DNA from: Cytophagales bacterium
Lineage (GTDB): Bacteria; Bacteroidota; Bacteroidia; Cytophagales; Thermoflexibacteraceae
Assembly: GCA_013298985.1 (NCBI GenBank)
Contig: JAAFJS010000018.1
Coordinates: 1-42,485 of the forward strand
DNA length: 42,485 bases
Direction of reading: 5' to 3'
The translations under genes were made by a program, and so were the position numbers. A model generated the notes under the pieces. The model made no database searches, was not told where the DNA came from, and saw nothing but the letters and a program-made list of their open reading frames with translations. Each line of letters begins with the position of its first letter. Within the stretch, counting starts at the first letter, position 1. Of the stretch, positions 3,296-38,600 are shown in pieces.

Positions 3296-3299
3296 GGTT

Positions 3300-4178
3300 T
3301 TAAAGTGTGTTTTTAAAGGCAAGTAAGGTATTCTTAATCAGCGAGGTAACTGTCATCAAGCCCACACCGCCAGGCACAGGGGAAATATAGCTACATTTGG
3401 GCGCAACTTCCTCGAACTTGACATCACCTTTGATGGCAAATCCCGTTTTTTTGGTGCTGTCTGGTACGCGAGTTGTGCCTACATCAATCACCACAGCGTC
3501 TTGCTTTACCATGTCGGCAGTAATAAAATCTGGCTTTCCCATTGCCACTATCAGAATATCGGCAGAAAGGCAGACCTCTTTCAAATTTTTGGTTTTGCTG
3601 TGTGTCAGCGTAACTGTACAGTTTCCAGGGTACGCATTTCTGCCCATCAGTATGCTCATAGGCAATCCAACAATGTGGCTACGCCCCACCACTACGCAGT
3701 GCTTTCCTGCTGTTTCAATCGCATATTTTTCTATCATTTGCAAAATGCCAAAAGGCGTGGCGGGGATAAAACTGGGCATATTCAGCACCATTTTACCAAT
3801 ATTGTCAGGGTGAAAACCGTCCACATCTTTTTGAGGGAGAATGGCTTTGATGACCTTTTGCTCGTCAATGTGCTTAGGCAGAGGCAACTGGACTATAAAG
3901 CCGTTCACAGACTGCTCGCGATTCAGCTTTTCGACTGTATCGAGCAGTTCCTTTTCACTCACGTTTGCGTCCAATCGAATCAAAGATGACTCCATGCCTA
4001 CTTTTTCACAGTTTTTCATCTTGCTATTCACGTAGGTTTCGCTTGCGCCGTCATTACCGACCAGAATTGCCGCCAAGTGAGGTGTTTTACCAAATTTATT
4101 TTTCAAAAGCGCAACTTCGGCAGTGATTTCTTCTAAAATCAGTGCCGAAACCCATTTACCGTCCAATAATTTCATCAT
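3300..4178 (-). CDS. folD: Bifunctional methylenetetrahydrofolate dehydrogenase / methenyltetrahydrofolate cyclohydrolase
   Basis: A 292-residue cytoplasmic enzyme of one-carbon metabolism converting 5,10-methylene-THF to 10-formyl-THF with NADP. Key family residues are present: Tyr49 and the catalytic Lys53 in the YVNSK motif, Gln97 in QLPLP, and Asp120 in KDVDGF. The Rossmann-type cofactor segment [12 protein letters not shown] and the C-terminal signature [11 protein letters not shown] are also present. Length is normal. The start is one of two adjacent ATGs (4176-4178 or 4173-4175). A small conserved hypothetical gene ends 31 bp upstream on the same strand and may share its transcript. 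The stop codon faces the TsdA-like gene with a 4-bp gap, leaving no room for a separate terminator. Confidence 0.95.
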
Positions 4179-15559: not shown

Positions 15560-18397
15560 TTAATTCGTAACCAACACGAATGCACCCCAAAAGTAGGGGA
15601 ATTTGTATTTTGCCTTAATGGTATTTTGTGCAGTGATAAAAGCCTTGTTTTTATCATTGGTTTTCAGCCAGTTAGCATAGAAAGTTTGCATCAGTTCTTT
15701 GGTGGCATTGTCATCTACTTTCCACAAACTCATAATGATAGACCTTGCACCCGCAACCTGAAAAGCTCTTTGCAAACCATACACCCCTTCTCCATGCTTT
15801 ACATCACCAAGCCCTGTTTCACAGGCACTTAGCACGACTACGTCCGTATCGTCGAGCTTCATGGTCATAGCTTCGTAAGCCGTCAAAATGCCATTGTTTT
15901 GTCCTTTTGTTTCAGTGCTATTTTGCTGATTCATAGCACCTTCCGCACCTGCGAGCATGAGTCCTGCGCGTAGGAGAGGGTTTTCCTTTGCTCTCGAAGT
16001 TTCCACCCCAAAAATTTTATCTTGCCCAAAATTTTCTAAGTCCGCCAAGAAGAAACCATGCGTGGCTATGTGCAAGATTTTGGGATTATCTGCCTTTTTG
16101 ACTGATTCCTCGGCGGCGGCGGCAGAGAGTAGCATATTAGTTTGTAACTTATTGGTTTTCAATACTTGGTTAATAGTTTCAACTTCTATTTTGGTGCCAG
16201 GCAAATCCACTATCGTATTGGCACTACCATAGTCAGGAAAACCTATCAAAATTGCGTTTTTACCTTTCAAACTGCTGCTTGGATTTTTGATTTGGGGAAT
16301 GAAGCGTGAGTTGGCAACCATCTCTATTTCGCGTTCTTCGACCACAAATTTCCCTGCCGTATTCTTTAATGTATTGACATTGATTTGGTTATAGATACCA
16401 TCAGAAGAAAGATAGACCACTTTTTTGTTTTTGACCAGCTCATTGATTTTTTCCCAATAGGCATTATAAGATTTGTTGTCCTCTATTTTGGTACGAATCC
16501 CGTTTTTATACATCTTAAAACTCTGCCCTTCCAAAGTCCTTCCATTTTCCAATACTGCAATTTCAGGATTTTCTTTGTCCTTACTCAGTACCAGTGCCAC
16601 ATACAACACATTGTCTGTGAACTTCTTATCAAACTTTTGCACGCGAATTATCTCTACTGCGGCTTCCTCTGGGGCAAGCACTTTTTTGATGTCGTCCAGT
16701 TTATAAATTAGTTGTTCGTAGCCTTTGGCAAAAAGCGCAGACTTTTGTGAAAGCGATTTTTCCGTTTGGTTCGTCGCATTTTCCAAAGAATCCAAATTGA
16801 TATTCTCCTCTGCCAATTCCTCACGACTCATCATGTAGTAATTGCCAAGCATTTCTTTTTGGTCAGTCCATGTTTTGTATTCCTCCACCAGTGCCGCGTC
16901 CGAGCTATTCAAAATCTGATTTTTGATTTTTGTACTTTCACTGAGCAAAAGACCTTTGAGATTTATGTGGGCATTATACATTTCATTCAAAAGACTTTTA
17001 TCTTGCGGATATGCCTGAATCACCAGTGAATAAAAAATCTGGAATTTAGGACTAACCAAATCCCAAAACTTGGTTTTTTCATACTCACTCAGGGCGGGAA
17101 AATTGTTTTGAACAATGTCCATATTTTTCTTCAAAACCTCACGAAATCCAGCCGTTGCTTTTTTCAAATCACCTTTCTGCCAGTAAAGCAACGCCAAATC
17201 TTCCTCGGACTTAATCATGTCGGGGTGCTTTTCGCCCAAGACCGACTTACGGATACTCGCCACTTTCGCAAGTAGGCTTTCCGCCTTGTCCAGTTGGTCA
17301 TTTATCCGATAAAAATTCCCTAAGTTGCTGATAGTGTTTGCATAAGAAGGGTGATTTTCGCCAAACTTACTCTTGTAAATGTCTGCTGCTTGATTGAGTA
17401 ATTTTTCCACCTCATCATTTTTGCCTGTTTCCAAATAAAAAGCGGCTAAATTGTTGAGCAAATGCGCGTAATCAGGGTGTTTTTTGCCTACTTTTTTTTC
17501 CAAATTTGATTTTACATCTGTATAAATTTGTGATGCTTCCTCATATTTTTTCATGTCTTGGTAAAGCAAACCCAAATTCATTTGCAAACGCGTGTAGTTC
17601 AACGATTTTTCCTTCAACAAAGGCTGTGCAATCGCCAAAGAAGATTTGAAAATTTCCTCTGCCTTGTCATATCGACCTATCGTCTGAAAAAGTATACCCT
17701 TGTTATTCAGGCAGATAGCATACGGAAGGCTATTTTCTCCTTTACTTTGTTTGATAGCGGTGAGTGCTTGCTCCATCAGGTTTTCTGCTTCCAAATATCG
17801 CCCTAAGTCCTTGTAAAGCACCGCCTTATTGTTCAGAGATGCACCGTAGGCAGATAAAGTTGGGCTATTTTTGCTTGCTTCTAAGCCCGCCTCCGTAAAT
17901 TTTTCCGCCTGCGCGTACCTGCCCGTTGTGTGGTAAAGCAAGCCCAGATTGCTCAAAGTCTGTGCATAAATAGGGTGTGAACTCTCGCCAATGCCTTCCA
18001 GCAATAGTTTAGTGCCTTTGAAGCTGACCTCTGCCATCTTATATTTATTGTTGGCATAGAGCATTTCCGCCATGCCATTGCTTTCTCGCGCATTGTCTAT
18101 GGGACGTTCTGCGCGTTGGTCAGCCCTATATACTCCCTTGATTAAGAGGACTTTCTGCTTGCCAAACCGTTCTTTATTCTGAAAAAGGGCGGCATTATCA
18201 CTCAGGGCAATCGCGTAGTTAAAGCTGGTCGTGTCGTACTCCTCACGCATCTTATTGAGTTGGAAAAATCCTTCCTCTTTGGCAGTGCGTGCGGCATTAT
18301 TGGCGGCTTGTTTTGCCTTGTTTTTCAGCCTGTCCAAGATTTGTGCCTGCACCTGCACCCCCGAAAGTATCAGCAGTAATAATACTAATTTTTTCAT
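15560..18397 (-). CDS. Secreted TPR-CHAT domain protein (caspase-like peptidase family)
   Basis: 945 residues. A signal peptide (1-19, ending VQAQ) comes first, then a helical lead and a series of about seven to eight TPR repeats (roughly 115-430) recognisable by phrases such as NLGLLYHTTGRYAQAEK, NLAAFYLETGKNDEVEK and NLGNFYRINDQLDKAE. A helical linker follows. The C-terminal CHAT domain has the catalytic dyad His780 in HIATHGFF and Cys859 in LSACETGLGD, followed by GVYGLQRAFQVAGARSIIMSLW. CHAT is a caspase/separase-related cysteine peptidase fold. Here both dyad residues are intact, so proteolysis is plausible. The signal peptide places it in the periplasm or outside. Neighbours give no target. 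It is a single gene behind a two-way terminator. Confidence 0.88.
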   Translation of the reverse strand: MKKLVLLLLILSGVQVQAQILDRLKNKAKQAANNAARTAKEEGFFQLNKMREEYDTTSFNYAIALSDNAALFQNKERFGKQKVLLIKGVYRADQRAERPIDNARESNGMAEMLYANNKYKMAEVSFKGTKLLLEGIGESSHPIYAQTLSNLGLLYHTTGRYAQAEKFTEAGLEASKNSPTLSAYGASLNNKAVLYKDLGRYLEAENLMEQALTAIKQSKGENSLPYAICLNNKGILFQTIGRYDKAEEIFKSSLAIAQPLLKEKSLNYTRLQMNLGLLYQDMKKYEEASQIYTDVKSNLEKKVGKKHPDYAHLLNNLAAFYLETGKNDEVEKLLNQAADIYKSKFGENHPSYANTISNLGNFYRINDQLDKAESLLAKVASIRKSVLGEKHPDMIKSEEDLALLYWQKGDLKKATAGFREVLKKNMDIVQNNFPALSEYEKTKFWDLVSPKFQIFYSLVIQAYPQDKSLLNEMYNAHINLKGLLLSESTKIKNQILNSSDAALVEEYKTWTDQKEMLGNYYMMSREELAEENINLDSLENATNQTEKSLSQKSALFAKGYEQLIYKLDDIKKVLAPEEAAVEIIRVQKFDKKFTDNVLYVALVLSKDKENPEIAVLENGRTLEGQSFKMYKNGIRTKIEDNKSYNAYWEKINELVKNKKVVYLSSDGIYNQINVNTLKNTAGKFVVEEREIEMVANSRFIPQIKNPSSSLKGKNAILIGFPDYGSANTIVDLPGTKIEVETINQVLKTNKLQTNMLLSAAAAEESVKKADNPKILHIATHGFFLADLENFGQDKIFGVETSRAKENPLLRAGLMLAGAEGAMNQQNSTETKGQNNGILTAYEAMTMKLDDTDVVVLSACETGLGDVKHGEGVYGLQRAFQVAGARSIIMSLWKVDDNATKELMQTFYANWLKTNDKNKAFITAQNTIKAKYKFPYFWGAFVLVTN

Positions 18398-20553: not shown

Positions 20554-21285
20554 ATGAAAATCTTAATTTGTATAAGCCACGTTCCAGATACGAATGCCAA
20601 AATTCCTTTCAAAGATGGTAAACCCGATTTGGCAGGGCTAACCTTTGTGATTGCTCCTTATGACGACTTTGCGCTGGCAAGGGCGGTGGAGTTGCGCGAC
20701 CAAACTGCGGGCAAACTTACGGTGCTTTGTGTAGGCAAGGCGGAAACTGAAGCGACAATTCGCAAGGCATTGGCAATAGGTGCGGACGACGCTATTCGCG
20801 TAGATGCCGAGCCAACAGATGCCTTTTTTGTTGCTACCCAAATCGCAGATATAGCCAAGAAAAACCAGTATGATATGATTTTAACAGGTAGAGAATCAAG
20901 CGATTACAATGGTGGGCAGGTGCATGGCATGGTAGCGGCAATGTTGGGAATCCCTTGCGTAGTACCTTGTATGAAGTTAGATTTGAATGGAAATGTAGCG
21001 ACAATGTACCGCGAAATTGAGGGTGGAAAAGAGGTCGTACAGCTTCCTACGCCTTTTGTGGCAGGTTGTCAAGAACCCATCGCAGAGTGGAAAATTCCAA
21101 ACATGAGAGGCATTATGACTGCCAAAAGTAAACCTTTGCAAGTAGTTCAACCTGTGGGTGTTACAGTGGCAACACAAGTGGCAAGTTATGAAGTACCTGC
21201 CCCAAGAGGCAACTGCAAAATGATTGATGCAGGCAATGTGGCGCACTTGGTAGAAATGCTTAAAAGTGAAGCAAAAGTAATTTAA
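20554..21285 (+). CDS. etfB: Electron transfer flavoprotein subunit beta
   Basis: 243 residues, the normal length. The N terminus MKILICISHVPDTNAKIPF, the segment FALARAVELRD, and the conserved AMP/FAD region TGRESSDYNGGQVHGMVAAMLG identify EtfB. With EtfA it forms the soluble FAD/AMP heterodimer that takes electrons from acyl-CoA dehydrogenases and passes them to ETF:quinone oxidoreductase. etfA follows 112 bp downstream on the same strand, with a repeat fragment in the gap. The lysine-free AMP-binding details were not analysed. The start is an ATG giving the exact family N terminus. Confidence 0.95.
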   Translation: MKILICISHVPDTNAKIPFKDGKPDLAGLTFVIAPYDDFALARAVELRDQTAGKLTVLCVGKAETEATIRKALAIGADDAIRVDAEPTDAFFVATQIADIAKKNQYDMILTGRESSDYNGGQVHGMVAAMLGIPCVVPCMKLDLNGNVATMYREIEGGKEVVQLPTPFVAGCQEPIAEWKIPNMRGIMTAKSKPLQVVQPVGVTVATQVASYEVPAPRGNCKMIDAGNVAHLVEMLKSEAKVI

Positions 21286-21320
21286 TGAGTTAGGAATTAT
21301 TAGTTATGAATTATAAATTT
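21283..21320 (+). repeat. Fragment D of the MITE-like repeat
   Basis: The sequence right after the etfB stop codon resembles only the head of the repeat (GAATTATTAGTTATGAATTATAAATT). The tail AACTAATTTTG part is not recognisable, so this looks like a decayed or truncated copy. As in copy C, the left end coincides with a stop codon. Confidence 0.4.
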
Positions 21321-21397
21321 TTATTATTTGAATAATTCAATAACTAACGATTGAACTACTAACAATTTAACAACCAAAAATTAATAATTTAATAAAA

Positions 21398-22333
21398 ATG
21401 AACGTATTAATATATATAGAATCTGAAAATGGTGCGCCTAAGAAATCTGCACTCGAAGCAGTAGCCTACGGTGCAGAAATAGCAAAGGGTCAAGTAGTTG
21501 CGCTGGCTTCAAGTGATACAGCTACGGCAGACTTGGGTAATTATGGTGCGGATAAAGTCCTACAATTTGCAGTTTCTGGCAAGTTAGAGGCGAGCCAAGT
21601 TGCGGAATTGGTGGCACAGGCGGCAGAGGCACAAAATGCAGAGGTCGTGATTTTTGCAAAGTCAATTTTGAATGACCTTGCTGCGCCCATGGTGGGCATC
21701 AAGTTAGGTGCATCAGTTGCCTCTAATGTGATAGAAAAGCCTGATTTTAGCAAGGGGTTTGTGGTCAAAAGAAGCGTTTTTTCAGGAAAAGCATTTACAG
21801 AAGTAGCCCTGAATAATGCCAAGAAAGTATTGACTATCAAGAAGAACGCAGTAGCAATGACTGAAAAAGGCAAAACGGCAGCAGTGGAAAGTTTCAGCCC
21901 TGCTATCACAGCCTCTCCTGTCCAAATCAAAGAAACAACACAAAAAACAGGTGATATTTTATTGACAGATGCCGATATTGTAGTTTCTGGCGGTCGTGGT
22001 TTGAAGGGACCTGAGCATTGGGGTATGATTGAGGAATTGGCAAAAACCTTGCACGCCGCCACAGGTTGCTCAAAGCCTGTTTCTGACATGGATTGGCGAC
22101 CACACCACGAACACGTAGGGCAGACGGGCATCAAGGTAAGCCCAAATCTCTATGTAGCGGTAGGTATTTCGGGCGCAATTCAGCACTTGGCGGGCGTGAG
22201 TTCTTCCAAAACCATCGTGGTTATCAACAAAGATGCTGATGCGCCTTTCTTCAAAGCGGCGGATTACGGAATCGTGGGTGATGCCTTTGACATTATTCCC
22301 AAGCTGACAGAAGCTCTGAAAAAAGCAATGTAA
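21398..22333 (+). CDS. etfA: Electron transfer flavoprotein subunit alpha
   Basis: 311 residues. The N-terminal half matches the EtfA alpha/beta domain. The C-terminal FAD-binding domain is clear: VVSGGRGLKGPEHWGMIEELA, then AATGCSKPVSDMDWRPHHEHVGQTG, then YVAVGISGAIQHLAGVSSSK and a final INKDADAPFFKAADYGIVGD. These segments hold the FAD-contacting Arg, Ser, Gln-Thr-Gly and Ala-Gly residues of the family. It pairs with etfB just upstream. The gene order etfB-etfA is the usual one. Downstream is a palindrome that may end the transcript. Confidence 0.95.
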   Translation: MNVLIYIESENGAPKKSALEAVAYGAEIAKGQVVALASSDTATADLGNYGADKVLQFAVSGKLEASQVAELVAQAAEAQNAEVVIFAKSILNDLAAPMVGIKLGASVASNVIEKPDFSKGFVVKRSVFSGKAFTEVALNNAKKVLTIKKNAVAMTEKGKTAAVESFSPAITASPVQIKETTQKTGDILLTDADIVVSGGRGLKGPEHWGMIEELAKTLHAATGCSKPVSDMDWRPHHEHVGQTGIKVSPNLYVAVGISGAIQHLAGVSSSKTIVVINKDADAPFFKAADYGIVGDAFDIIPKLTEALKKAM

Positions 22334-22355
22334 TTTATTGATTTTCAAAATATTA

Positions 22356-22488
22356 TATAAGTTGTTGGTGTCAAAACAAATTTATCGGACACTTTTAAAG
22401 TGTCCGATAATTGATTTTTAAGGAGTTACAAAAATAAAAAAGCACTTTTGTTTTGGGCATTTACTTATAAGTTGTTGGTGTGAAAACA
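22356..22488. repeat. 23-bp direct repeat flanking a palindrome
   Basis: TATAAGTTGTTGGTGT-S-AAAACA occurs at 22356-22378 and again at 22466-22488 with a single mismatch. The interval between them holds the 29-bp palindrome at 22382-22410. The spacing (110 bp from unit to unit) and the inner palindrome suggest a small mobile or duplicated element. Confidence 0.55.
22382..22410 (+). terminator. 29-bp palindrome after etfA, terminator or REP-like repeat
   Basis: The arms TTATCGGACACTTT and AAAGTGTCCGATAA are perfect complements of 14 bp around one central base. The following sequence has T-rich TTGATTTTTAAG, so it could terminate etfA, which ends 50 bp upstream. Without a strict T-run it may equally be a dispersed palindromic repeat. 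Confidence 0.55.
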
Positions 22489-22518
22489 TCTACAAATTTT
22501 TTATTGGTAAATTTTGCC

Positions 22519-22526
22519 TACCTTTG
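22519..22526 (+). promoter_or_regulatory. -7 promoter box of the acyl-CoA reductase gene
   Basis: TACCTTTG matches TAnnTTTG, identical in core to the ABC-F promoter box, 37 bp before the ATG at 22563. The -33 region is only a T-run. Confidence 0.5.
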
Positions 22527-22562
22527 CCCTAAGAATATCATCATTATAAAAAACCTGCCCAA

Positions 22563-23570
22563 ATGAACTTAACAGCACGAAAAAATGCTTTTTTATCCTT
22601 AAAAACAAGTCTTGAAAATTTAGAAAAAGACGAGTTAGCAGATATTTTTCAGCGTGCAGCGTCTGATAATCCTTGGTTCACTCCCGACAATGTACTTTTT
22701 GCCTTCCAAGGTCTGCTTCATTATTTGGACGAAAATACTTTTAACGCATGGTTAAATCAATATACCGAAATCAAAAATCCATGTAAAATAGGAGTCGTTA
22801 TGGCAGGAAATATTCCTATGGTGGGCGTGCATGACCTGATTTGTGTGCTGGTCAGTGGGCATCATTTGCAGGTAAAGCTCAGTTCGCAAGATAGTTTTTT
22901 GATGAAATTTCTGATAACCAAATTGATACAAATTGCCCCTGAGTTTGCTCAAAAAATAGAAATAGTGGAAAGGTTGAAAGATTTTGATGCAGTGATAGCC
23001 ACAGGCAGCGACAATACGGCGCGCTACTTTGACTATTATTTTAGCAAATATCCTACGATTATTCGCAAAAATAGAACTTCGGTAGCCGTCTTGCATGGAG
23101 AAGAAACCACAGCGCAGTTGGCGGAATTGGGCAAGGACATTTTTACCTATTTTGGGCTGGGTTGCCGAAATATTACCAAGCTGTATGTGCCTGAAAACTA
23201 TGGTTTTAGCCTATTTTTTGAAGCCATAGAACCCTATAAAAATATCATTCATCACCACAAATACATCAATAATTACGACTACAATAAGTCTGTTTTTTTG
23301 GTGAGAACTATTCCACACTTGGACAATGGATTTTTGATGTTACTCGAAAATGAAAGCCTTTTTTCCTCAATTTCTGTGATGCACTACGAAAAATATACAG
23401 ATGTTGCTGCTTTAACACAGAAACTGGGCGATGCACAAGAAAAATTGCAGTGCATTGTTGGTGATTATCAGCGTTTTCCATCATTTATAGACTTTGGCAG
23501 GGCGCAACTTCCATCTATGAATGACTATGCTGATGGTATCGATACCATGAAGTTTTTGGTAAATCTTTAA
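22563..23570 (+). CDS. Acyl-CoA reductase, LuxC-like
   Basis: 335 residues related to the LuxC acyl-CoA reductase family (aldehyde dehydrogenase superfamily), which reduces fatty acyl-CoA to aldehyde with NADPH. Visible features are the nucleotide-binding strand KIGVVMAGNIPMVG, the segment AVIATGSDNTARYF, and the catalytic-type cysteine Cys201 in FGLGCRNITKLYVP. This form is somewhat shorter than LuxC itself and is common in Bacteroidota outside any light-producing context. It follows etfBA by 230 bp, with its own promoter box. A role in lipid or aldehyde metabolism is inferred. No acyl carrier or lux-like partner is nearby. Confidence 0.8.
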   Translation: MNLTARKNAFLSLKTSLENLEKDELADIFQRAASDNPWFTPDNVLFAFQGLLHYLDENTFNAWLNQYTEIKNPCKIGVVMAGNIPMVGVHDLICVLVSGHHLQVKLSSQDSFLMKFLITKLIQIAPEFAQKIEIVERLKDFDAVIATGSDNTARYFDYYFSKYPTIIRKNRTSVAVLHGEETTAQLAELGKDIFTYFGLGCRNITKLYVPENYGFSLFFEAIEPYKNIIHHHKYINNYDYNKSVFLVRTIPHLDNGFLMLLENESLFSSISVMHYEKYTDVAALTQKLGDAQEKLQCIVGDYQRFPSFIDFGRAQLPSMNDYADGIDTMKFLVNL

Positions 23571-26813: not shown

Positions 26814-27119
26814 ATGTTCAAACAACTAAAAGCTATCTTTCATTTTTACAAGGGTTTTGCATTGATTACCTTACTTGTAACCCTTACAAATACATATTTA
26901 ATCTACAAGTCAGGGGTAATCAACTCTTTAAGCATTATTTTAGTTACAAAAATAGCTGTAAATGGTATTATTTGGTATTTCTATCAGATTTTTTGGGCAA
27001 AAGAATTTTACTTTTATCACAACTGCCATTTAGGGCAAAAACAGCTTTGGGCAGGTGCGCTGGGGATTGATTTTTTGATAATGATATTTTTATTTACCAT
27101 TGTAACTTATTTAAGATGA
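26814..27119 (+). CDS. Three-helix membrane protein coupled to an ABC ATPase
   Basis: 101 residues. Three hydrophobic helices are visible (about 14-32, 37-57 and 80-99), with basic ends and a conserved-looking loop AKEFYFYHNCHLGQKQLW. It starts with ATG at 26814 and its stop overlaps the start of the ABC ATPase by 4 bp (27116-27119), giving translational coupling. It is far smaller than a normal ABC permease, so if it is the partner of the ATPase it must act as an oligomer or with another protein. I do not recognise the family. Confidence 0.72.
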   Translation: MFKQLKAIFHFYKGFALITLLVTLTNTYLIYKSGVINSLSIILVTKIAVNGIIWYFYQIFWAKEFYFYHNCHLGQKQLWAGALGIDFLIMIFLFTIVTYLR

Positions 27120-27793
27120 GTATTTTAGAAATAGATAGTGTTTGGCTTTCTTACAAACTCACCAAGATTTTGCAAAATGTGTATATGAAATGTGAAACGG
27201 GCGAAGTGGTAGGGCTGTTGGGTAGGAATGGGGCAGGAAAATCGTCTTTGCTACAGCTATTGATGGGCTTCATGGAAGAAACTTGGCTCGGTACATTAGA
27301 AGGCACACAGGTAGGGAAGTCTGTCAGGGTGAATGAAAAGTATGTACAAAAGCCCTTTCGAGTGAACGGTTTGATTAACTATCTTCCTCAAAATGAGTTT
27401 ATTCCTAAAAGTCTAAAAGTAAAAACTGCGCTGGATTGGTATGAGGTAGCACCTGAAACCTTATTTGTCGATTTTCCTGAATTAGCAACCTTACTTTCTT
27501 TTCGCTTTGGGGAACTTTCTGGCGGTCAATGTCGCTGGATAGAAACTTTATTGGTGCTAAAAGCGAATACTCAATTTACCATTTTGGACGAGCCATTCAC
27601 CCATGTAAGCCCGCTACAAGTAGAAAAACTAAAGCAAATCATTGATAATGAGAAGAAAAGAAAAGGAATAATTATCACAGACCACCTACATAGACACATT
27701 ACAGAAATAAGTGATAGGATTTATTTTATCAAAAATGGGATGATAATTCCTATAAACACGCCTGCGCAATTAGGCGATTTAGGCTATATTTGA
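27116..27793 (+). CDS. ABC transporter ATP-binding protein without an obvious permease
   Basis: 225 residues with one complete ATPase domain: Walker A GRNGAGKS (36-43), signature ELSGGQ, Walker B FTILDEPF and switch histidine in ITDHLHRH. The Walker B glutamate is intact, so it should hydrolyse ATP. It has no membrane segment. The only linked membrane protein upstream is the three-helix gene, coupled by a 4-bp overlap. Downstream the frame of eboC, if read from a TTG, would overlap its stop by 4 bp. The ATPase resembles single-domain LptB/LolD-like subunits in size. Substrate is unknown. Confidence 0.85.
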   Translation: MSILEIDSVWLSYKLTKILQNVYMKCETGEVVGLLGRNGAGKSSLLQLLMGFMEETWLGTLEGTQVGKSVRVNEKYVQKPFRVNGLINYLPQNEFIPKSLKVKTALDWYEVAPETLFVDFPELATLLSFRFGELSGGQCRWIETLLVLKANTQFTILDEPFTHVSPLQVEKLKQIIDNEKKRKGIIITDHLHRHITEISDRIYFIKNGMIIPINTPAQLGDLGYI

Positions 27794-27816
27794 TACCTTT
27801 GTCAAAAAAGAATTTG

Positions 27817-28734
27817 ATGAAACCTTATTTACAACTGATGCGCCCTGCCAATATCGTTACTGCCGTAGCGGACATCATCGCAGGTGCGTCCCTTAGTTAT
27901 TACGTTCCTCCTCATGCTTCTATCGTGGGCAATTTGGCGCAGTCGGCATGGAATATCCTAAGTTTTCCTGTGTATGATTTGCCCTTTCTGATGCTTGCTA
28001 CGGTGGGTTTGTACGGTGGTGGCGTAGTGCTAAACGACGTTTTTGATGCAGAATTAGACAAGATAGAACGCCCTGAACGCCCGATTCCGAGTGGAAAAGT
28101 AAGTAAACAAAACGCCAGCTTGCTGGGCTTTGGTTTGCTCATCATAGGGATTTTGTGTGCTTTCAAGGTTTCTTTGCTCAGTGGAGGCATTGCGTTTGTG
28201 GTGGCTGGTTTGGCTGTTTTGTACGACTACAAGGGCAAACACCATGCTTTTTTTGCACCTCTGAACATGGGCTTGTGTCGCGGTGGAAACTTATTGCTTG
28301 GCGCGAGTATAGTAACTTCTAATGTGTCAGATTTTTGGTTTTTAGCGTTTATTCCTATCGTTTATATTGCGGCAATCACTACGGTCAGTCGCGGGGAAGT
28401 GCATGGAGGCGATACGAAAAACTTGCGGTGGGGCTTTGCGATGTATGTGGCGGTGGTTATTTCTTTGGCATTATTGCTGTTTTTCTTTTCCAAAAATGTA
28501 TTTGCCTTGCCTTTTTTATTGCTTTTTGTGTATTTTATTTTCCCGCCCTTGCTCAAAGCCATCAAGCAGCCTATCCCCGCCAATGTGATGAAAGCGGTGA
28601 AAAGTGGCGTGATTTCCCTGATAGTGATGGACGCAACGCTGGCAACTATCTTTGCGAATTGGTATTTAGGCGGTATTGTCTTATGTTTGCTTTTTGTATC
28701 GCGCTATTTGGCAAAAACCTTTGCAGTAACGTAA
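27817..28734 (+). CDS. eboC: UbiA-type prenyltransferase, EboC-like
   Basis: 305 residues from the ATG at 27817; a TTG at 27790 would overlap the ATPase stop. About eight to nine membrane helices. The first Asp-rich prenyl-diphosphate motif is NDVFDAELD, followed by ERPERPIPSG. The second region VLYDYKGKHH and then PLNMGLCRGGNLLLGAS and SRGEVHGGD are features of the EboC subgroup, known from ebo clusters of cyanobacteria and some Bacteroidota. It is not a haem O synthase (CtaB), whose motifs differ. None of the other ebo genes lies here; instead it sits between a lone ABC ATPase and ferrochelatase. The assignment is from recalled motifs. Confidence 0.7.
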   Translation: MKPYLQLMRPANIVTAVADIIAGASLSYYVPPHASIVGNLAQSAWNILSFPVYDLPFLMLATVGLYGGGVVLNDVFDAELDKIERPERPIPSGKVSKQNASLLGFGLLIIGILCAFKVSLLSGGIAFVVAGLAVLYDYKGKHHAFFAPLNMGLCRGGNLLLGASIVTSNVSDFWFLAFIPIVYIAAITTVSRGEVHGGDTKNLRWGFAMYVAVVISLALLLFFFSKNVFALPFLLLFVYFIFPPLLKAIKQPIPANVMKAVKSGVISLIVMDATLATIFANWYLGGIVLCLLFVSRYLAKTFAVT

Positions 28735-28809
28735 TTGCTATGTTTTTATTTTTTATCTTGCAAATAAAACCAAGTTAGTACATAAGTTCTCCCTTCTAAA
28801 AAAACTCAA

Positions 28810-29820
28810 ATGAAACTCAAAACAGGCGTTTTATTAGTCAATCTTGGCACTCCTGACAGCCCTTCCATTCCTGATGTGCGTAAATATTTGCGCGAATTTC
28901 TGATGGACGGCAGAGTAATTGATATAAATCCAATCCTTCGTTTTTTATTGGTCAATCTCATCATTGCGCCTTTTCGTTCGCCCAAGTCCGCCAAGATTTA
29001 CAAGAAACTCTGGACAGAAAAAGGCTCTCCATTGCTATTTTATGGGGTGGAACTGGCTGATTTACTACAAGATGCGCTGGGTGATGATTATGTAGTTTCG
29101 CTGGCAATGCGCTACCAAAGTCCAAGCATGGAATCTGCGCTCGCAAAGCTGAAAAGTCAAGCTATCAAAAAAATAATCGTATTGCCACTTTTCCCCCAAT
29201 ATGCCTCTGCCACCACAGGTTCGGTACATGAAAAAGTGATGCGCCTCCTCAGCCAGTGGCAACTGATGCCGCAGGTGGTACTGATTGATAGCTATCCCAA
29301 CAATGCAGAAATGATTGAAACTTTTGCGGCATTAGGCAAAAAATATCTCGCTTCGCATCAGTTTGACCACGTTATTTTCACTTTTCATGGCTTGCCCCAA
29401 CGCCAGCTTCGTAATGCAGACAGCCGATGCCTGACAAGTGGGTGTTGTGATGAGTTTTCTGAAAAAAATCGCCTGTGTTACCGCGCCCAGTGTGTAGAAA
29501 CCGCCCGCCAATTAGCTCAGACATTGGCACTTACCAGCCAAGACTACACAATTTCCTTCCAATCTCGGCTTGGGAGTGACCCTTGGATTCAGCCTTACAC
29601 AGACGCTACTATCGAAAAATTAGCGAAAGAAGGCAAAAAGAAAATCTTGGTTTTTACGCCTTCCTTTGTAGCGGATTGTCTGGAAACGACTATCGAAGTT
29701 GGTGAGGAATACAAAGAACTGTTCGAGGAAAAAGGGGGCGAACATTGGCAGATGGTAGAAAGCCTTAACACAGACCCGCGCTGGGTCAATGCGCTGAAAA
29801 ACATGGTTTTAGCAAATTAA
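28810..29820 (+). CDS. hemH: Ferrochelatase with internal cysteine-rich segment
   Basis: 336 residues. It inserts iron into protoporphyrin (or coproporphyrin) in the last steps of haem synthesis, on the cytoplasmic side of the membrane. The N terminus GVLLVNLGTPDSPS, the segment YRMG-equivalent AMRYQSPS, the active-site His193 in FTFHGLPQR and the late YIVFTPSF-like motif VFTPSFVADCLET identify the family. Shortly after the active site are five cysteines (207, 212, 213, 223, 228) in a pattern known from a class of bacterial ferrochelatases thought to carry a [2Fe-2S] cluster. The start lies 75 bp after eboC on the same strand. Confidence 0.93.
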   Translation: MKLKTGVLLVNLGTPDSPSIPDVRKYLREFLMDGRVIDINPILRFLLVNLIIAPFRSPKSAKIYKKLWTEKGSPLLFYGVELADLLQDALGDDYVVSLAMRYQSPSMESALAKLKSQAIKKIIVLPLFPQYASATTGSVHEKVMRLLSQWQLMPQVVLIDSYPNNAEMIETFAALGKKYLASHQFDHVIFTFHGLPQRQLRNADSRCLTSGCCDEFSEKNRLCYRAQCVETARQLAQTLALTSQDYTISFQSRLGSDPWIQPYTDATIEKLAKEGKKKILVFTPSFVADCLETTIEVGEEYKELFEEKGGEHWQMVESLNTDPRWVNALKNMVLAN

Positions 29821-29999: not shown

Positions 30000-30062
30000 A
30001 AGCATTAATTTCCTCAACTAAACAAGTCCGTTTTAATAAAAAATTAAAAACTTCCTTTGAAA

Positions 30063-32243
30063 ATGAAAAAACGAATCAAACAAACTACTTTTTACGCGTT
30101 ACTATTTGCATCTTTTCAGTTGATGCTTTCTAACTGCGGCTCGCCCACCGACCCAAGTGCCAATGTGGATTGGACAAACTATGGTGGTGATAAGGAATCT
30201 ACGCGCTACTCCCCTCTAAATCAGATAAATAAAGAAAATGTAAAAAACCTGAAAGTGGCATGGACGTACCGCACAGGTGATGCTGATACTGCTAAAAATC
30301 GTTCGCAAATCCAATGTCAGCCGATTGTGGTAAACGGAGTTTTGTATGCGTCTTCGCCTATGAAAAAGTTTTTTGCCTTAGAAGGCGCAACTGGAAAACA
30401 AATTTGGCTTTTTGACCCTTTGAAAGAAATTTCGGAAGGTGAATATGCCTGGGCAGGGACAAATCGCGGGCTTACTTACTGGGAATCAGGCAATGACAAG
30501 CGGATTTTGCTTACAGTTGGTGCTTATCTTTTTGCATTGAATGCCCAAACGGGCGAGGTCATTCGCAGCTTTGGGACGAATGGGAAAGTAGATTTGCATG
30601 AAGATTTAGATTACGACAAAAAAGATTTTTTTATTGTTTCCAATACACCTGCGATTGTTTATAAAAACTTACTTATTATGGGTATGCGCCTTTCCGAAGG
30701 AGCTGACGCAGCACCTGGACACGTGCGCGCCTATGACATACGTACAGGCAAGCGTACATGGATTTTTCATACCATTCCGCACCCAGGCGAGCTTGGCTAT
30801 GATACTTGGGAAGACAAAGAGGCATATAAAAAAGTAGGTGGTGCAAACAACTGGGCGGGCATGAGTTTGGACGAAAAGCGAGGAATCGTTTTTGTGCCTA
30901 CTGGCTCGGCGGCAGCAGATTTTTATGGGGGAAACCGCAAAGGTGCTAATTTGTTCGCTAACTGCCTGATAGCACTCAATGCCGCCACTGGCGAAAGGAT
31001 TTGGCATTTCCAAACGGTACATCACGACATTTGGGACAAAGATTTGCCTGCCAACCCTAATTTGGTTACGGTTACTAAAAATGGCAAAAAAATAGAAGCT
31101 GTCGCCCAAATTACCAAACATGGACTTATTTTCCTATTTGACAGAGAAACAGGTGAACCTATTTTTCCGATAGAGGAAATTCCTGTACCGCCTTCTGACC
31201 TTGCAGGCGAGCAGGCACACCCCACACAGCCTGTACCCACCTTGCCTGAACCTTTTGTGCGTCAAGTATTTACAGAAGATGAAATCACCAATATTTCTCC
31301 TGAATCACACGATTACGTCAAAGCAATTTGGCAGACCACCAAAACGGGACAGCGATTTATTCCACCGAGCAAACAAGGCACGATTATTTTCCCAGGATTT
31401 GACGGCGGCGGCGAGTGGGGCGGCGCGGCTTTTGATAAAGAAACAGGCGTTTTTTACCTCAATGCCAACGAAATGCCTTGGATTCTCAAAATTATAGACA
31501 TTGAGCAGTACGACCAGCTTGACTTTGCCAAAATGGGCAAGGGCGTTTATACGCAAAACTGTGCGGCTTGTCATGGAGAAAACCGAGAAGGAAATACAGG
31601 GGGCAATTATCCATCTTTGATTGATTTGAAAAAAAAATACAAGCAAGCTGAGGTATTGAAATTTATCAACAATGGCAAAGGCATGATGCCCGCCTTCAAG
31701 CATATTTCGGACAACGAAAAAGAGGCATTAGTTTCTTTTTTGTTAGAAATAGAAGGCAAACAAGAGGTGGTCAAAAAAGAAATTAGCGACAAAAAACAGA
31801 AAGTTCGCCGTGCTGAAACTCCCTATACGACCACAGGCTACAATCGCTTTTTTGACCAAAATGGCTATCCCGCAGTGCGCCCGCCTTGGGGAACGCTTAA
31901 TGCCGTAGATTTGAGCAGTGGCAAAATCTTGTGGAAAGTGCCTTTGGGCGAGTTTGAGGAACTGAGCAAGCAAGGCATCGCGCCCACAGGGACTGAGAAT
32001 TACGGTGGGGCAATTGTTACCAAAGGCGGCTTGTTATTCATTGGCGCAAGCAAAGACGAGAAATTTCGCGCCTTCGACAAAGAAAACGGCAACATCTTAT
32101 GGGAAACTCAGCTTCCCGCGGGTGGATATGCTACGCCCTGCACCTACTCGGTGAGTGGGAAGCAATATGTAGTCATCGCGGCAGGCGGTGGAAAGATGGG
32201 AACGAAGTCAGGGGACAGCTATGTAGCTTTTGCTTTGGAGTAA
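30063..32243 (+). CDS. PQQ-dependent dehydrogenase lipoprotein with embedded cytochrome c domain
   Basis: 726 residues from the ATG at 30063; a TTG two codons upstream is less likely. The N-terminal hydrophobic stretch ends in LSNC, so Cys25 may be lipidated, though Asn before the Cys is unusual. The sequence NVDWTNYGGDKESTRYSPL starts the eight-bladed PQQ propeller. Blade features are TGKQIWLFDP, NLKVAWTYRT and TGERIWHFQTVHHDIWD. A cytochrome c domain (CAACH at 500-504, Met in GKGMMPAFKH) is inserted, then the propeller resumes with GTLNAVDLSSGKILWKVPLG. Such enzymes oxidise sugars or alcohols in the periplasm. No pqq synthesis genes are here, so PQQ must come from elsewhere in the genome or medium. 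Substrate is unknown. Confidence 0.85.
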   Translation: MKKRIKQTTFYALLFASFQLMLSNCGSPTDPSANVDWTNYGGDKESTRYSPLNQINKENVKNLKVAWTYRTGDADTAKNRSQIQCQPIVVNGVLYASSPMKKFFALEGATGKQIWLFDPLKEISEGEYAWAGTNRGLTYWESGNDKRILLTVGAYLFALNAQTGEVIRSFGTNGKVDLHEDLDYDKKDFFIVSNTPAIVYKNLLIMGMRLSEGADAAPGHVRAYDIRTGKRTWIFHTIPHPGELGYDTWEDKEAYKKVGGANNWAGMSLDEKRGIVFVPTGSAAADFYGGNRKGANLFANCLIALNAATGERIWHFQTVHHDIWDKDLPANPNLVTVTKNGKKIEAVAQITKHGLIFLFDRETGEPIFPIEEIPVPPSDLAGEQAHPTQPVPTLPEPFVRQVFTEDEITNISPESHDYVKAIWQTTKTGQRFIPPSKQGTIIFPGFDGGGEWGGAAFDKETGVFYLNANEMPWILKIIDIEQYDQLDFAKMGKGVYTQNCAACHGENREGNTGGNYPSLIDLKKKYKQAEVLKFINNGKGMMPAFKHISDNEKEALVSFLLEIEGKQEVVKKEISDKKQKVRRAETPYTTTGYNRFFDQNGYPAVRPPWGTLNAVDLSSGKILWKVPLGEFEELSKQGIAPTGTENYGGAIVTKGGLLFIGASKDEKFRAFDKENGNILWETQLPAGGYATPCTYSVSGKQYVVIAAGGGKMGTKSGDSYVAFALE

Positions 32244-32654: not shown

Positions 32655-35600
32655 ATGGGAACTATGCATAAAAATACTTACTTCGAAAATAATATGATTT
32701 CTATTCAAAAACTCTTTGCAACTTTTGTTTTTTTTACTTCCTTTTTGTGTATAGGTAATATCTATGCACAAACAATAGGCGATTACAGAACTGCCAGTAC
32801 CAGTGGTGGGCGCACTTGGTCGATTCCCTCTGACTGGGAAACCTATAATGGGACTACTTGGGTTACAGCAACTTCGTATCCTGGACAGCTGCCTCCCAGC
32901 GCAAGCCAAAAGGTTACTATTCGCGGAACAGTGAATATTACACTGGGAATTGCACCCATAGAAAATATAGGAGGTTTAGAAATACTTGATGTAACAGGAA
33001 CAAGACTTACTATCTCTCCGAACATGAGTTTGCGCTATCAAGGTGTTCTTTCTGGCGTAAATGCAACTTCCTGCCCTGTTTGTACCGCTCAATTATTCCA
33101 AGTGAATGATGGAGACCATAGAAGTAATGGTTCGGGAAATTGGAGTGATTTTACAACTTATTGGCAGCGATTTGACAATGCGACAAAAGCATGGATTACT
33201 GGTATAGACTATCCAGGTCAGAGTGCGCCTGTTGCAGGACAGAAAGTATTTATCACCAATACAAGCAATATGTTCCTTGACCTTTCTCCTGTCCGTGAAG
33301 TAGGTAGGTTGATAGTAGAAAACGTAGGCAATGTTTCGCAAAATGGCTGTGCAAAGCTACAAATCCTGGGCGCGCTGACCAATTTTAGTGGAACAACTAT
33401 TCCCGCGGATAGATTTGCTGTTATCAATGCAGGAGATTATAGAACGACAGGAGGCGGAACGAATTGGACGGACTTAAATGCTTGGGCAAAATATGACGGT
33501 ACAGTTTGGGTAACGCCTGCAACAGACTATCCAGGACAGGTAGCTCCTTCAGCTACCCAAGATGTGATTATGATGCACGATATGACTACCAATGTAACGA
33601 TTCCTGCGGCTACCAATGTGGGCGACTTGTTTGTAGCAAGTGGGGTTACGCTGACAGCTACCTCAAACGCGATTGCAGTGAGGGTTTTGAAAAATTGTGG
33701 GACGATTGTTACACCTGCTAATGTTACCTCAGCCATTGTTGCTTATCGTTCTGTAGGGACAGGTAGCTGGAGCAATGTAGCAAATTGGCAAATAAATACA
33801 GGCTCAGGTTTTGTGGCTGCTACGGATTATCCTGGTGCAGGCGAACCAAGTGCTACTCAAACAGTTACGATACAGGCAGGGCATACCGTTACTTTAAACA
33901 TTACACCCGTAGAGGATATTGGCTCGCTGAATGTAGTAGGTAGCTTGGTTACTGCTGGTACACATACACTGAGGAGCAGAGGTACAACTACGGTTACAGG
34001 TTCGTGTACAAGTAGCTGCACGAAGGTAATTCCAGTGTTAATTAATTATTATCGCAATAATACTTCAGGAAACTGGTCTTCAGTGGCTAATTGGCAGAAA
34101 TACAATGGGACTGCTTGGGTAGCCTCAACAGACTATCCTGGTCAGAATCCAACAGTGGCTAATCAGCGAATTTTTGCGAGGTCTGGTACTGTCGTTTCAG
34201 TGGATATTACGCCTCCCAATGAGATTGGAACCAGTTTTTTTATAGAAAACGGGTCTATTTTACGCATCAATACTTGTGAAAATTTAAAAATTCTTCTCAA
34301 TGGTCCTATCATTAACGGGAGTTATTCTCCAAACAACGGCGTAATTACTACTATCAATAACAACGATTTTAGAAGTGTAGCCTCTGGAAATTGGTCAAGT
34401 AATACCACATGGCAAAAATTTAATGGGACTACATGGGTAGCGGCGGGTGCAGGCGAATATCCTGGTGTAAATGGTACTTTTTCAGGAATAGATGTATTTA
34501 TTCGTGCTGGACACACCATTACCTTAGATATTACCCCTCCCGAAGATGTCCAAAACTTTGTCATTGAGACTGGTGGAACTTTTAACATCAGTAGCAATTT
34601 TAATATTCGCTACCGAGGCACTTTTGTAAACTGCGTAGGTACTTATAACCCCAATTTAGGCAATGCTTTCCCTGTACGTACTGGAGATTTTCGCACCATA
34701 GGCTCTGCAAATTGGAATAGTGCAACTGTCTGGCAAACTTGGAATGGTATTGCTTGGGTAGGTATTGCAAACGGACCAGGACAAACAGCGGCGATGACGG
34801 CAGGTCATGTATTTATTCGCCCTGGACATACTATTACGGCTACAGCTACTGTCCCCAACAATATTTTTAGAACGGTTATTGAAAATACAAGTACACTAAC
34901 CATTAATAATGCAGTAGTTATCAATGCCTCTGAACAAGTTTTTATTTATGGAACGCTTAATCAGATAATGACAGGCATAATAAACTATCCAAATACAGGT
35001 GATTACCGCACACGCACTTTTACAGCAGCAAATCCATGCTTTACTGCGCTATTGAGTGGTACAGATGTAGCAGGCGATTATCGCACACGATTAGCTTCTG
35101 GCAATTGGAATGACTTTAACACTTGGCAGGTGTATAATGGTGCAGTTTGGAATAACTGTGCGGCAGGAAATTTTCCTGGTGCTTCTCCTATGGCTTCTGG
35201 CAGGGTATCCATCAGGAGTGGACACACCGTAACCTTGACTAACACACCCAATAATATTTTTAATCTTCAAATTCTGACTGGTGGTGCTTTGGTACTGAAT
35301 GCAGGGAACACACTTACTGTTACCAATGCTTTCCGCGACATCAATGCAACTCCTGCACTGAGTGGTACGGGAAGGTTGCTTGCCAATAACTGGAGCAATC
35401 CATGTTTTTGGGAAAGATATTCAGGAACGGTATGGGTGGCGGCTACTGATTATCCTGGTCAGAACAGTTCTGTTATTGCCCCGCGCGTAATCATACGTGC
35501 CAATCATTTTATTACTACGAATGTTACGCCTTTCCATGATTTGCAAACTATTTCGATAGTCAATACTGGCAGGCTAAACTTTATAGGAACGATGGGAACA

Positions 35601-38600
35601 AATGCAACGACCTTGCGACTACGTACTGCCGCCTCTGTAGTAGGTAGCTGTACTGAATGCGCCACCAATGCGATTCTCTTGGCAAATGGAGATTACAGAA
35701 GTGCTGCTTCTGCTGCTTGGGGAGTAGCCAGTACATGGGAAGTATATGGAAGTTCTATTTGGCAACCTGCTACGGAGTACCCTGGGCAAACTTCTGCCCC
35801 AGCTTCTAACACCCAAAGAGTATTCATCAGAACACCACATACAGTTACTTTGGGCTTAACACCCTGCGAGGACATCGGACTTGCCTTTATAGAAAGAAGT
35901 GCGACCTTGGAGATGGCTACCAGTGGTACTTACAGCCTCCGCGCAAGGGCAGCCATGGTCAAAAACGGAACATTCACTGCCAATGGAGGAAGCTATATTA
36001 CCGTAGCCAACGGAGATTTGAGGAGTGCTGCTACAGGAGACTGGGGAACAACTGCCACTTGGCAACAATTTGATGGAACTACTTGGAACGCTTTGGGCGC
36101 AGGCTATCCAGGTTCAGCTCCCGCCACAGCAAACAAAAATATTTATATCAGGTGTGGGCATACAGTTACTTTAGATGTAAATCCACCAGAAGACCTCGGC
36201 AATTTATTGGTAGAAAGAGCAAGTACCTTAAATGCAAGTGATTGCTTTATGGTAACTCTTACAGGCAATACCTCTTTTTTAGGAACAGTTACTACAGAAG
36301 CAAAGTTTAGTGGTCGTTCTGACCAGTTTATCAAAGTCAAAAATGGAGATTACAGAACCACAGGTGCAGGTACAAATTGGAGTTTAGCCGCCAACTGGCA
36401 GCGATTCAATGGTACTACTTGGGTAAGTGCAGACTTCCCTGGTGCATCAGATTATGTGAGTGGGCAAAACATTGTAGTAAGACACAACATAGATTTTAAT
36501 GCAGCACTGGCAAGACCAATTATTAACGTATTCATACTTTCTGGAGCTACCTTAACTAAAAGTGTAGGCGGTAATATTCAAGTATTTGGGCGTGATTTAT
36601 CTTCTGCTAATCAGTGTGGAGCAGCTACAGGACTGAATGGTCCAACTACTTCATCTCCAATTAGTTATTTAAGTAATATATGCTATTGCTCTAACAATCC
36701 AACTGGAGGTAGCTGGAGTAAAAAAGCAGATTGGGCTTTGTCTAATGACGATTGTGCGACCATTTCAGGTCCCGCTACGGACTATCCTGGATTGAATCCT
36801 CCTGCTCCTGATAGAACTGGTCCAACAATCCCTGGACAAAAAGTATATATTCGCAGTGGCTTCCCCATGACAGTCGATATTACCCCTGCTGAAGATATTA
36901 GGCAACTCACTATCAATGCAGGTGCAGTGCTTACTTTTCTAAATACAGCAGGTATAGGATATAACCTCAAAGTATGGTCAACTGGTGTAGGAGGAAGCAC
37001 AGGAGTAATAAACAATGGAACTATTAATAACATCAATAATATTTCAGGCATTGGTGGTACTGTCAATCAGCTATTTACAGGAAGCACCATTACTTTTATA
37101 GAAGATGGAGATTATAGGACGGCAGGGAGTAGTGGCAACTGGACAGATGTAAATACTTGGCAGGTTTTTGCTACTGACAGATGGGTAAATCTGTCTGGTC
37201 AGGTGCCTGGGCAATTGAATCCTTCTACTTCACAATCCATTATTATTCGTAAAGGCAGCACCATCAATGTAGATATTAGTATGCCTTTTGATAATAATGG
37301 CACTAATACAAGTAATATTACAGATTTAATCATAGAAGATAGTACTATACTCAATCCTTTGGCAAACTCTAATATCAGCATTCGCCAGCATTTAGTTAAT
37401 CATGGTACACTACAAGCGACTAACGGAAGTATTACCTTTGAAAACAATGTAAATAGTATTATCTTAGGAGCAACTGAGGTTGATAACTATCGTTTTTATA
37501 ACTTTGTAATGTCAAAACCCTCAATGACTGCGGTTACAGTTACTACCCAGAGAGATTTCAAAGTAAGAAATGATTTTGTTCAAAATAGTGCAGGAACTGG
37601 TGCTTTTACAGCAAGTAATCCCAGCACCATTTGGTTTGATGGAGATATAAGCCAAGATATTCGCGGAAGTGCTACTACGCTCACCAATACCTTCCATGAT
37701 ATTCAAGTTGACCAAGGTGCTACTGTGCTAAATATCAGCCGACCAGTTACAATTACCAATGACCTTGACCTGACTAATAACGCCAAAGTAACTAATACAA
37801 GCACTGTAAATGCCTTAAATACACTTTCCAACACTGACGGAATGGCTAATGGGGCAGCTCAGTTTATCAATGCTACCAATGGAACATTGAATTACAGTGG
37901 AGCAACTATTCCATTTGCCAATCAGTCTAACAAATTGATTGCCATTGCCAGCAATAATATTGTGGTTTATGACAGAAATGGAGCGCAAGGTATATATCCT
38001 ACCAACTATTTTAACCTAAATATTGGTACTGTAGCAGTTACAGGAACGAAAACCTTAGATGTAACGAATACTAATTATGAAGTAACAGGGACACTTTCGT
38101 TGGCAGGTAATGGAACTCTTTTTGAGGTAAACGGAACAACAGGACGTTTGCTTAATCAGAAAACAAATATTGGGATAGGCACAAAATATATTTATAATGC
38201 AAACACCAATACCATAGGCTTAGGTGGCTTACCAAACTTCAACGGACCTGGTAGCTCAGCAGACAGCTATGCAAGCAATTTTTCTGGAAGATTTAATAGC
38301 ATTAACGTTTCAAATAATCCAGGAAACAGCATTAGCTCAAGTAATCTAAATGATATTCGCTTCACATTAGGAACAGTAAATGGTGGCGCGAGTAATGTAT
38401 ATGCAGTTCGTAATGCAACAACACTTTCTGCCGCACCTATCCCAGATGTACCTAACGCTGCAGTGGTAAGGTTTGACATTGTGGGTTCTATCAATAACAA
38501 CACGACAACTTCTGTAGCCTCCATGCTCGTAGGCAATGGCTTTACAGATAACTCGGCAATTTCTGGTACGATTGCAGGTCGCTTAGATTTCAACTTCCGT

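What the first reader, a model, noticed from the sequence alone, without database searches (positions are those of the whole stretch)
26814..29820. Compact cluster: 3-helix protein, lone ABC ATPase, EboC prenyltransferase, ferrochelatase
The first two genes overlap by 4 bp (ATGA) and the third starts 24 bp after the ATPase stop (or overlaps by 4 bp if its TTG is used). hemH follows after 75 bp. The ATPase has no normal permease; its only membrane partners are a 101-residue three-helix protein and possibly the UbiA-type EboC. EboC normally sits in a six-gene ebo cluster whose other members are absent here. The arrangement suggests an uncharacterised membrane system in which a prenylated or haem-linked compound is made and moved across the inner membrane. 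The function is inference.
Basis: partly seen in the sequence, partly recalled or inferred. Interest (0 to 1): 0.62.

Follow-up and report, generated by a model that had tools for sequence, protein, structure and literature searches.

The report
Mini two-gene ABC membrane module
A tiny three-helix membrane protein and its own ATP-driven motor protein travel together as a nearly inseparable gene pair across one bacterial phylum, which suggests an unusually small, uncharacterised ABC-type membrane machine; the two genes behind it are unrelated neighbours.

Summary
The 101-residue protein (26814-27119) and the ABC ATPase (27116-27793) form a two-gene module. Of 33 profile matches to the small protein in 395 genomes of the phylum, 32 abut the ATPase. 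All 41 ATPase matches of 166 bits or more, and one at 154 bits, have a small membrane protein directly upstream. The 48 paired ATPases form one clade (100/99). The small protein has no Pfam, NCBIfam or PDB-sequence match. Its most conserved part is the cytoplasmic TM2-TM3 loop, E-YxFYxNxGxSKxxL, placed like the coupling helix of LptF/LptG; the ATPase is closest to LptB.

EboC and ferrochelatase do not belong: eboC adjoins hemH in 0 of 21 other genomes, and neither is found in the 49 other pair regions read.

Best reading: a minimal LptB-like ABC system whose membrane part is an oligomer of 3-TM subunits. The partnership is strongly supported; oligomer, transport and substrate are inference. 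Homology to ABC2 or LptF/G permeases was tested and not found.

The parts
26814..27119 (+). 101-residue three-TM protein, N-in/C-out by the positive-inside rule; partner subunit of the ATPase
   Evidence: no Pfam/NCBIfam/PDB-sequence match; AF2 three helices; K/R inside > outside in 39 of 39 family members
27003..27047 (+). conserved cytoplasmic TM2-TM3 loop (residues 64-78, EFYFYHNCHLGQKQL; family consensus E-YxFYxNxGxSKxxL), candidate coupling element
   Evidence: N70 in 38 of 38, Y68 34 of 38 (aromatic 38 of 38), G at 72 in 35 of 38, L78 34 of 38. The window protein is atypical: H72 where 35 of 38 have G, G74 where 28 of 38 have S
27116..27793 (+). ABC ATPase of the pair-specific clade, LptB-like, 4-bp ATGA overlap with the small gene
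   Evidence: clade support 100/98 and 100/99 with ten more members; LptB among the best-matching solved chains
27221..27244 (+). Walker A GRNGAGKS
   Evidence: G36, G39, G41, K42, S43 in 38 of 38
27389..27391 (+). Q-loop glutamine Q92 (38 of 38), followed by P97 (37 of 38)
27515..27529 (+). ABC signature LSGGQ
   Evidence: S135 and G137 in 38 of 38
27587..27592 (+). Walker B aspartate and catalytic glutamate D158-E159
   Evidence: 37 and 38 of 38
27683..27685 (+). H-loop histidine H190
   Evidence: 36 of 38
27782..27790 (+). C-terminal G-Y-I; Y224 is in 38 of 38, G223 in 25 of 38, L or I at 225 in 36 of 38
27817..28734 (+). NOT part of the module: EboC, UbiA-type prenyltransferase, unrelated neighbour
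28810..29820 (+). NOT part of the module: ferrochelatase HemH, unrelated neighbour

Best explanation
The first two genes are a self-contained two-gene ABC module. SHOWN by comparison: the small 3-TM protein and the ATPase are near-obligate partners, adjacent and usually able to overlap by 4 bp, with an ATPase that keeps its catalytic motifs. INFERRED: the ATPase dimer docks under an oligomer of the 3-TM protein. The conserved cytoplasmic TM2-TM3 loop (E-YxFYxNxGxSKxxL) sits in the ATPase groove as a coupling element, with TM1 to TM3 laid out as in the N-terminal half of LptF/LptG. ATP binding and hydrolysis then move the helices to extract or export a hydrophobic or amphipathic molecule. The substrate is unknown; EboC and HemH are incidental downstream neighbours.
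For: Small to ATPase: 30 of 30 fetched loci and 38 of 39 larger regions. ATPase to small: the 9 ATPases of 166 bits or more missed by the small-protein search plus one at 154 bits, 10 of 10 (four of the ten small proteins are divergent and only probable), and 10 of 10 in the order, one cut by a contig end. A start codon overlapping the small gene's stop by 4 bp is available in 26 of 38 pairs. The ATPases form one clade: 38 rows 100/98, 48 rows 100/99, with an LptB-like control (G385, no small gene) outside. Distance correlation r = 0.87 over 38 pairs (0 of 2000 shuffles) and 0.54 over 20 hand-picked representatives (0 of 5000). Neighbours change between lineages. Catalytic motifs kept. Topology N-in/C-out in 39 of 39. 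The order TM2, coupling helix in the LptB groove, TM3 is described for LptF/G in passages of PMC5548808, with crucial glutamates E84/E88 in passages of PMC5082905.
Against: No detectable homology to ABC2 or LptF/G permeases: hhalign probabilities 0.1-0.6%, against 0.1-0.2% for reversed profiles and EboC controls. The LptF/G coupling-helix profile puts the loop first in only 8 of 39 and is significant in none. PDB sequence and fold searches gave nothing useful. The association of the loop's acidic residue with K/R at ATPase position 98 (12 of 23 against 1 of 15) has only 4 independent pairs and is not significant. The window's own loop departs from the consensus. One small gene (L150) stands without an ATPase. 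No transport data exist. Co-divergence can partly reflect shared ancestry.
Confidence: 0.55

Rival explanations
1. The small protein is a membrane anchor or regulator of the ATPase, and the complex does mechanical or regulatory work rather than transport.
For: Three TM helices are few for a translocation path; the neighbours annotated suggest no substrate; no homology to permeases was detected.
Against: The strongest conservation lies in one cytoplasmic loop placed like a coupling helix, with further conserved positions in the TM1 region (F11, Y12; N in 24 and S in 28 of 38), more than a plain anchor needs. At 101 aa with three TM helices there is no room for a periplasmic domain that could transmit force.
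Confidence: 0.25
2. The pair is part of a larger transporter whose main permease is encoded elsewhere in the genome.
For: Split ABC systems exist (recalled). The genome has 57 ABC_tran matches and permease genes that could serve (3 ABC2_membrane and 2 LptF/G matches).
Against: The pair recurs in different neighbourhoods, and no third gene recurs across host families apart from three small clusters of common families (3, 3 and 2 of 39 regions). A dispersed third subunit would have had to be present each time.
Confidence: 0.15
3. One reading: a four-gene system that makes and moves a prenylated or haem-linked compound.
For: Close packing in this window. [quoted passage not shown]
Against: eboC-hemH adjacency in 0 of 21 other genomes. 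No other window gene flanks 29 other hemH loci, and the only extra hit at 21 other eboC loci is one ABC-domain cross-match. No EboC or HemH relative in 49 other pair regions. EboE lies on another contig. The pair's ATPase was not found in the 12 other genomes of the family sampled, while EboC is over the cut-off in 7 of them.
Confidence: 0.03

Closest known systems
LptB2FG (LPS extractor), LptB with the TM1-TM3 half of LptF/LptG
   Same: LptB is the best NCBIfam match of the ATPase (TIGR04406) and among the top PDB chains. Layout N-in, TM1, TM2, cytoplasmic coupling loop, TM3, C-out as in LptF/G before the periplasmic domain (passages of PMC5548808). The spacing acid-x7-G-x-S/T is present in 19 of 39 family members, the window protein not among them, and E-x7-G-x-S in 20 of 24 LptF/G sequences.
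   Different: No jellyroll domain, no TM4-6; LptB cut-off not met (105 of 240 bits); no profile homology to LptF/G. Where the LptB-like outgroups have F-R behind the Q-loop, the pair ATPases have P and a variable residue.
ABC2-type (6-TM) exporters
   Same: Coupling element between TM2 and TM3 (recalled); proposed to descend from a duplicated 3-TM element (passages of PMC3654945, abstract included).
   Different: 101 residues and 3 TM; hhalign finds no relation. All 39 members share one topology, so a parallel oligomer cannot simply copy the inverted halves of a 3+3 duplicate.
EboC / ebo cluster
   Same: The neighbour at 27817-28734 is a true EboC by NF035940.
   Different: Not linked to the pair in the other genomes read; the only other ebo gene sought, eboE, is on another contig.

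Membership tests
ABC transporter ATPases (PF00005) | Walker A, Q-loop, LSGGQ-like signature, Walker B-Glu, H-loop | tested here: met
   PF00005 60.7 bits over 25; key residues conserved in 36-38 of 38
LptB (TIGR04406 equivalog) | Score over the curated cut-off of 240 bits | tested here: not met
   105.1 bits; separate clade, 100/98, 100/99
LptF/LptG permeases (PF03739) | Profile match or detectable profile-profile homology of the small protein | tested here: not met
   No Pfam match at E up to 1 (members of A1, none LptF/G); hhalign 0.6%; coupling-helix profile not significant
ABC2 permeases (PF01061) | 6-TM ABC2 fold or profile match | tested here: not met
   No match; hhalign 0.1-0.5%; three helices only
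Working ABC transporter (two NBDs plus a translocation path) | ATPase and membrane subunit form a complex that moves a substrate | not testable with these tools
   Only single chains could be folded; no experiment
ebo cluster system | ebo genes linked, eboC within the cluster | tested here: not met
   eboC without other ebo genes in the window; eboE on contig C207. eboA, B, D, F were not searched for in the genome

The most novel reading that the evidence does not exclude
A present-day ABC transporter whose whole membrane part is an oligomer of ~100-residue, 3-TM subunits: possibly the smallest ABC membrane subunit, and a living model of the unduplicated 3-TM element that has been proposed as ancestor of ABC2 permeases.
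Probability: 0.3. Interest if true: 0.75.

Novelty: new variant of a known kind. Interest (0 to 1): 0.52.

Why it matters
A protein family without a match in Pfam, NCBIfam or PDB sequences, but found in at least 41 of 395 sampled genomes of the phylum and tied to its own ATPase clade, gives a small and cheap system for asking how little membrane protein an ABC motor needs. PMC3654945 (passages) says ABC2 permeases arose by duplication of a 3-TM element and that only the ABC3 family still shows unduplicated forms. A working 3-TM ABC membrane subunit would make that idea directly testable.

Tried and rejected
The four-gene system was rejected on synteny. Homology of the small protein to ABC2_membrane, ABCG-like and LptF/G proteins and, as a control, EboC was tested by hhalign with reversed sequences as null: nothing. 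In that call one ABC2 row (L205) was plainly the wrong open frame and one ABC2_C row (L207) was a 51-residue fragment; they were not removed. The LptF/G coupling-helix profile was not significant. The salt-bridge idea (loop residue 64 with ATPase position 98) gave Fisher p = 0.005 without phylogeny but only 4 independent pairs, median p 0.5.

Foldseek against the PDB: 19 matches, none at E <= 0.001. Viral contigs: none. Plasmids: none. The single scan of named genomes, with the ATPase alone, found 2 distant ATPases at 24% identity, so no organism is named. PADLOC: ATPase-domain matches only, best mad3 at 7e-16; none for the small protein. Single members of alignment A1 gave weak Pfam or NCBIfam hits, best E 0.008 (HIG_1_N), none shared by two members. 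A Bacteroidota-type promoter pattern (recalled): 3 matches in the window, 3.3 expected, none near the pair. Literature searches for a 3-TM or minimal ABC permease listed 2, 0, 0 and 1 papers; by title and start of abstract none describes this pair. Searches gave the ebo, ABC2-evolution and LptB2FG papers, of which only passages were seen.

Rows dropped: L064 (contig-cut) from the set of 39; 5 of 28 outgroup loci from the trees for short or missing matches; 7 loci left out of alignments A2 and A3 (L146, L148, L151, L164, L165, L172, near relatives of kept rows, and the lone gene L150). The EboC reference began one codon early (27814, TTG, instead of ATG 27817).

Full report
OBSERVATION. The ORFs are at the stated places: small protein 26814-27119, ATPase 27116-27793 with an ATGA overlap, EboC to 28734, hemH 28810-29820. 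The ATPase is an ABC_tran protein whose best NCBIfam score is LptB, far below that family's cut-off (105 of 240 bits). EboC and HemH pass their NCBIfam cut-offs. The small protein matches nothing in Pfam or NCBIfam at E up to 1.

IS IT ONE CLUSTER? No. In 59 related genomes EboC scores over the cut-off in 22, the window's own included. HemH was searched in the same 59 genomes. In all 21 other genomes with EboC the two genes lie on different contigs or at least 300 kb apart; most assemblies are drafts, so flanks of 1.5 kb were compared as well. Around the 29 other hemH loci fetched no other window gene is found. Around the 21 other eboC loci the only extra hit is one ABC-domain cross-match to another window ATPase (a few loci are cut by contig ends). 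In 11 larger eboC regions the neighbours differ, and eboE lies near in 3 (L109, L111, L112). EboE of this genome is on contig C207. The pair's ATPase was not found in the 12 other genomes of the same family sampled, where the best hits are about 4e-21 or weaker (three of these genomes are under 90% complete). EboC over the cut-off is present in 7 of those 12. G+C is 29.7% and 38.2% in the pair against 45% in eboC and hemH, which fits a separate arrival but does not prove it.

THE PAIR. A search of 98 genomes (own included) with the ATPase shows 10 strong matches outside the window in 9 genomes (E 2e-54 to 8e-34), then a gap to 9e-26 and weaker. All 10 have a ~93-110-residue membrane protein just upstream, one truncated by a contig end. 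A profile of ten small proteins (A1) found 33 matches in 31 of 395 genomes of the phylum. All 30 fetched loci have the ATPase adjacent. Of 39 larger regions 38 do. The exception, L150, is a solitary small gene at a locus where two other genomes (L161, L168) have the full pair; no ATPase remnant was found.

The converse test used an ATPase profile (A2) on the 395 genomes (only the best 7 candidates a genome were scored and weaker matches are not listed, so counts are lower bounds). The listing shows 41 matches of 166 bits or more, then a dense group from 158 bits down. Thirty-two of the 41 are the pairs already known. The other nine, one match at 154 bits (G274) and, as a control, the one at 158 bits (G385) were fetched. 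The nine and G274 have a ~95-130-residue membrane frame abutting upstream; G385 has none. In four of the ten (G299, G384, G239, G274) the small protein is so divergent (E 1e-5 to 1e-2 in a tiny search, motif [FY]DNL) that I call it probable. A profile of those four found no further clear member in the 395 genomes. The module is thus in at least 41 of 395 genomes, G274 included. Nothing outside the phylum could be sampled, except plasmids (none) and viral contigs (none).

EVOLUTION. The 38 paired ATPases form one side of a branch (100/98) against 23 other ABC ATPases. With the ten further ones added, all 48 do so (100/99), G385 falls outside, and the four divergent ones are a subclade (100/98). 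Long branches meet at the join with the outgroup, as the program warns. Members of one host family (f26) fall in several places of the tree, and the neighbours differ between lineages, so the pair has probably moved or been duplicated as a unit. Flank gene families do recur within groups of close relatives (up to 10 regions, all in one genus-level group). Across host families only three do: an amidohydrolase (3 regions), a short-chain dehydrogenase (3) and a sigma-70 region 4 protein (2), all common families. Pairwise distances of the two partners correlate (r 0.87; 0.54 on 20 representatives; no shuffle as high); shared ancestry contributes to this. Ten flanking genes annotated (esterases, a PD40 repeat protein, an endonuclease-family protein, an RDD protein, an M23 peptidase and others) show no common theme.

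ANATOMY. Positive charge is higher in the N-terminus plus TM2-TM3 loop than in the other loop plus C-terminus in 39 of 39 proteins (means 6.3 and 0.9), so N-in, C-out. AlphaFold2 on the single sequence gives three helices with modest confidence, and Foldseek finds nothing at E <= 0.001. The most conserved stretch is the cytoplasmic TM2-TM3 loop, E-YxFYxNxGxSKxxL, with N70 in 38 of 38; an aromatic pair F11-Y12 lies at the start of TM1. The window protein is an outlier in the loop (H72, G74). The ATPase keeps its catalytic residues and has an invariant C-terminal Y224 and a near-invariant P97 behind the Q-loop.

MECHANISM. In LptB2FG the coupling helices lie between TM2 and TM3 of LptF/LptG in a groove of LptB; glutamates E84/E88 there are crucial, F90 and R91 of LptB take part, and TM1 residues also touch LptB (passages of PMC5082905 and PMC5548808). 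The small protein has the same order of elements as that N-terminal half, and 19 of 39 members, not the window's, share the spacing acid-x7-G-x-S/T (a motif chosen after the fact). Formal tests of homology failed. I therefore claim 'works like', not 'is a member of'. The step from partnership to transport is inference, as is the oligomer.

NOVELTY. A new variant of a known kind: an ABC ATPase with a miniature, unlisted membrane partner. Four literature searches in the open library list nothing that by title or abstract describes it; most subscription papers are not covered. The link to the proposed 3-TM ancestor of ABC2 permeases (PMC3654945) is a hypothesis, weakened by the uniform topology and the absence of profile homology.

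Noticed in passing
G000:C207 (L103) 2347-3549: EboE lies on a small contig between a dinucleotide-binding reductase-like gene and a Gfo/Idh-like gene (types judged by eye); eboC is on another contig, while in L109, L111 and L112 eboC and eboE are near each other.
   Followed up: partly
L150 5955-6245 (-): A lone small-protein gene without its ATPase at a locus where L161 and L168 carry the full pair; the same genome has a complete pair elsewhere (L149).
   Followed up: partly
window 32655-42485: A 3277-residue frame reaching the last base of the window contig, with a G8 domain as its only Pfam match at E up to 1e-4.
   Followed up: no
window 15560-18397 (-): A 945-residue TPR-CHAT protein, a caspase-like type often seen in signalling or defence (recalled).
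   Followed up: no
window 20554-23570: Two ETF subunits followed by a weak LuxC-type acyl-CoA reductase match (25.5 bits).
   Followed up: no
window 30057-32243: A PQQ-dehydrogenase-like beta-propeller with an inserted cytochrome c domain, downstream of hemH; not within 1.5 kb of hemH in the 29 other loci compared.
   Followed up: no
L290, L291, L292, L294: A divergent subfamily of the small protein with a [FY]DNL motif, in genomes outside the class of the window genome; rare in the sample (4 of 395), with ATPases that form their own subclade.
   Followed up: partly
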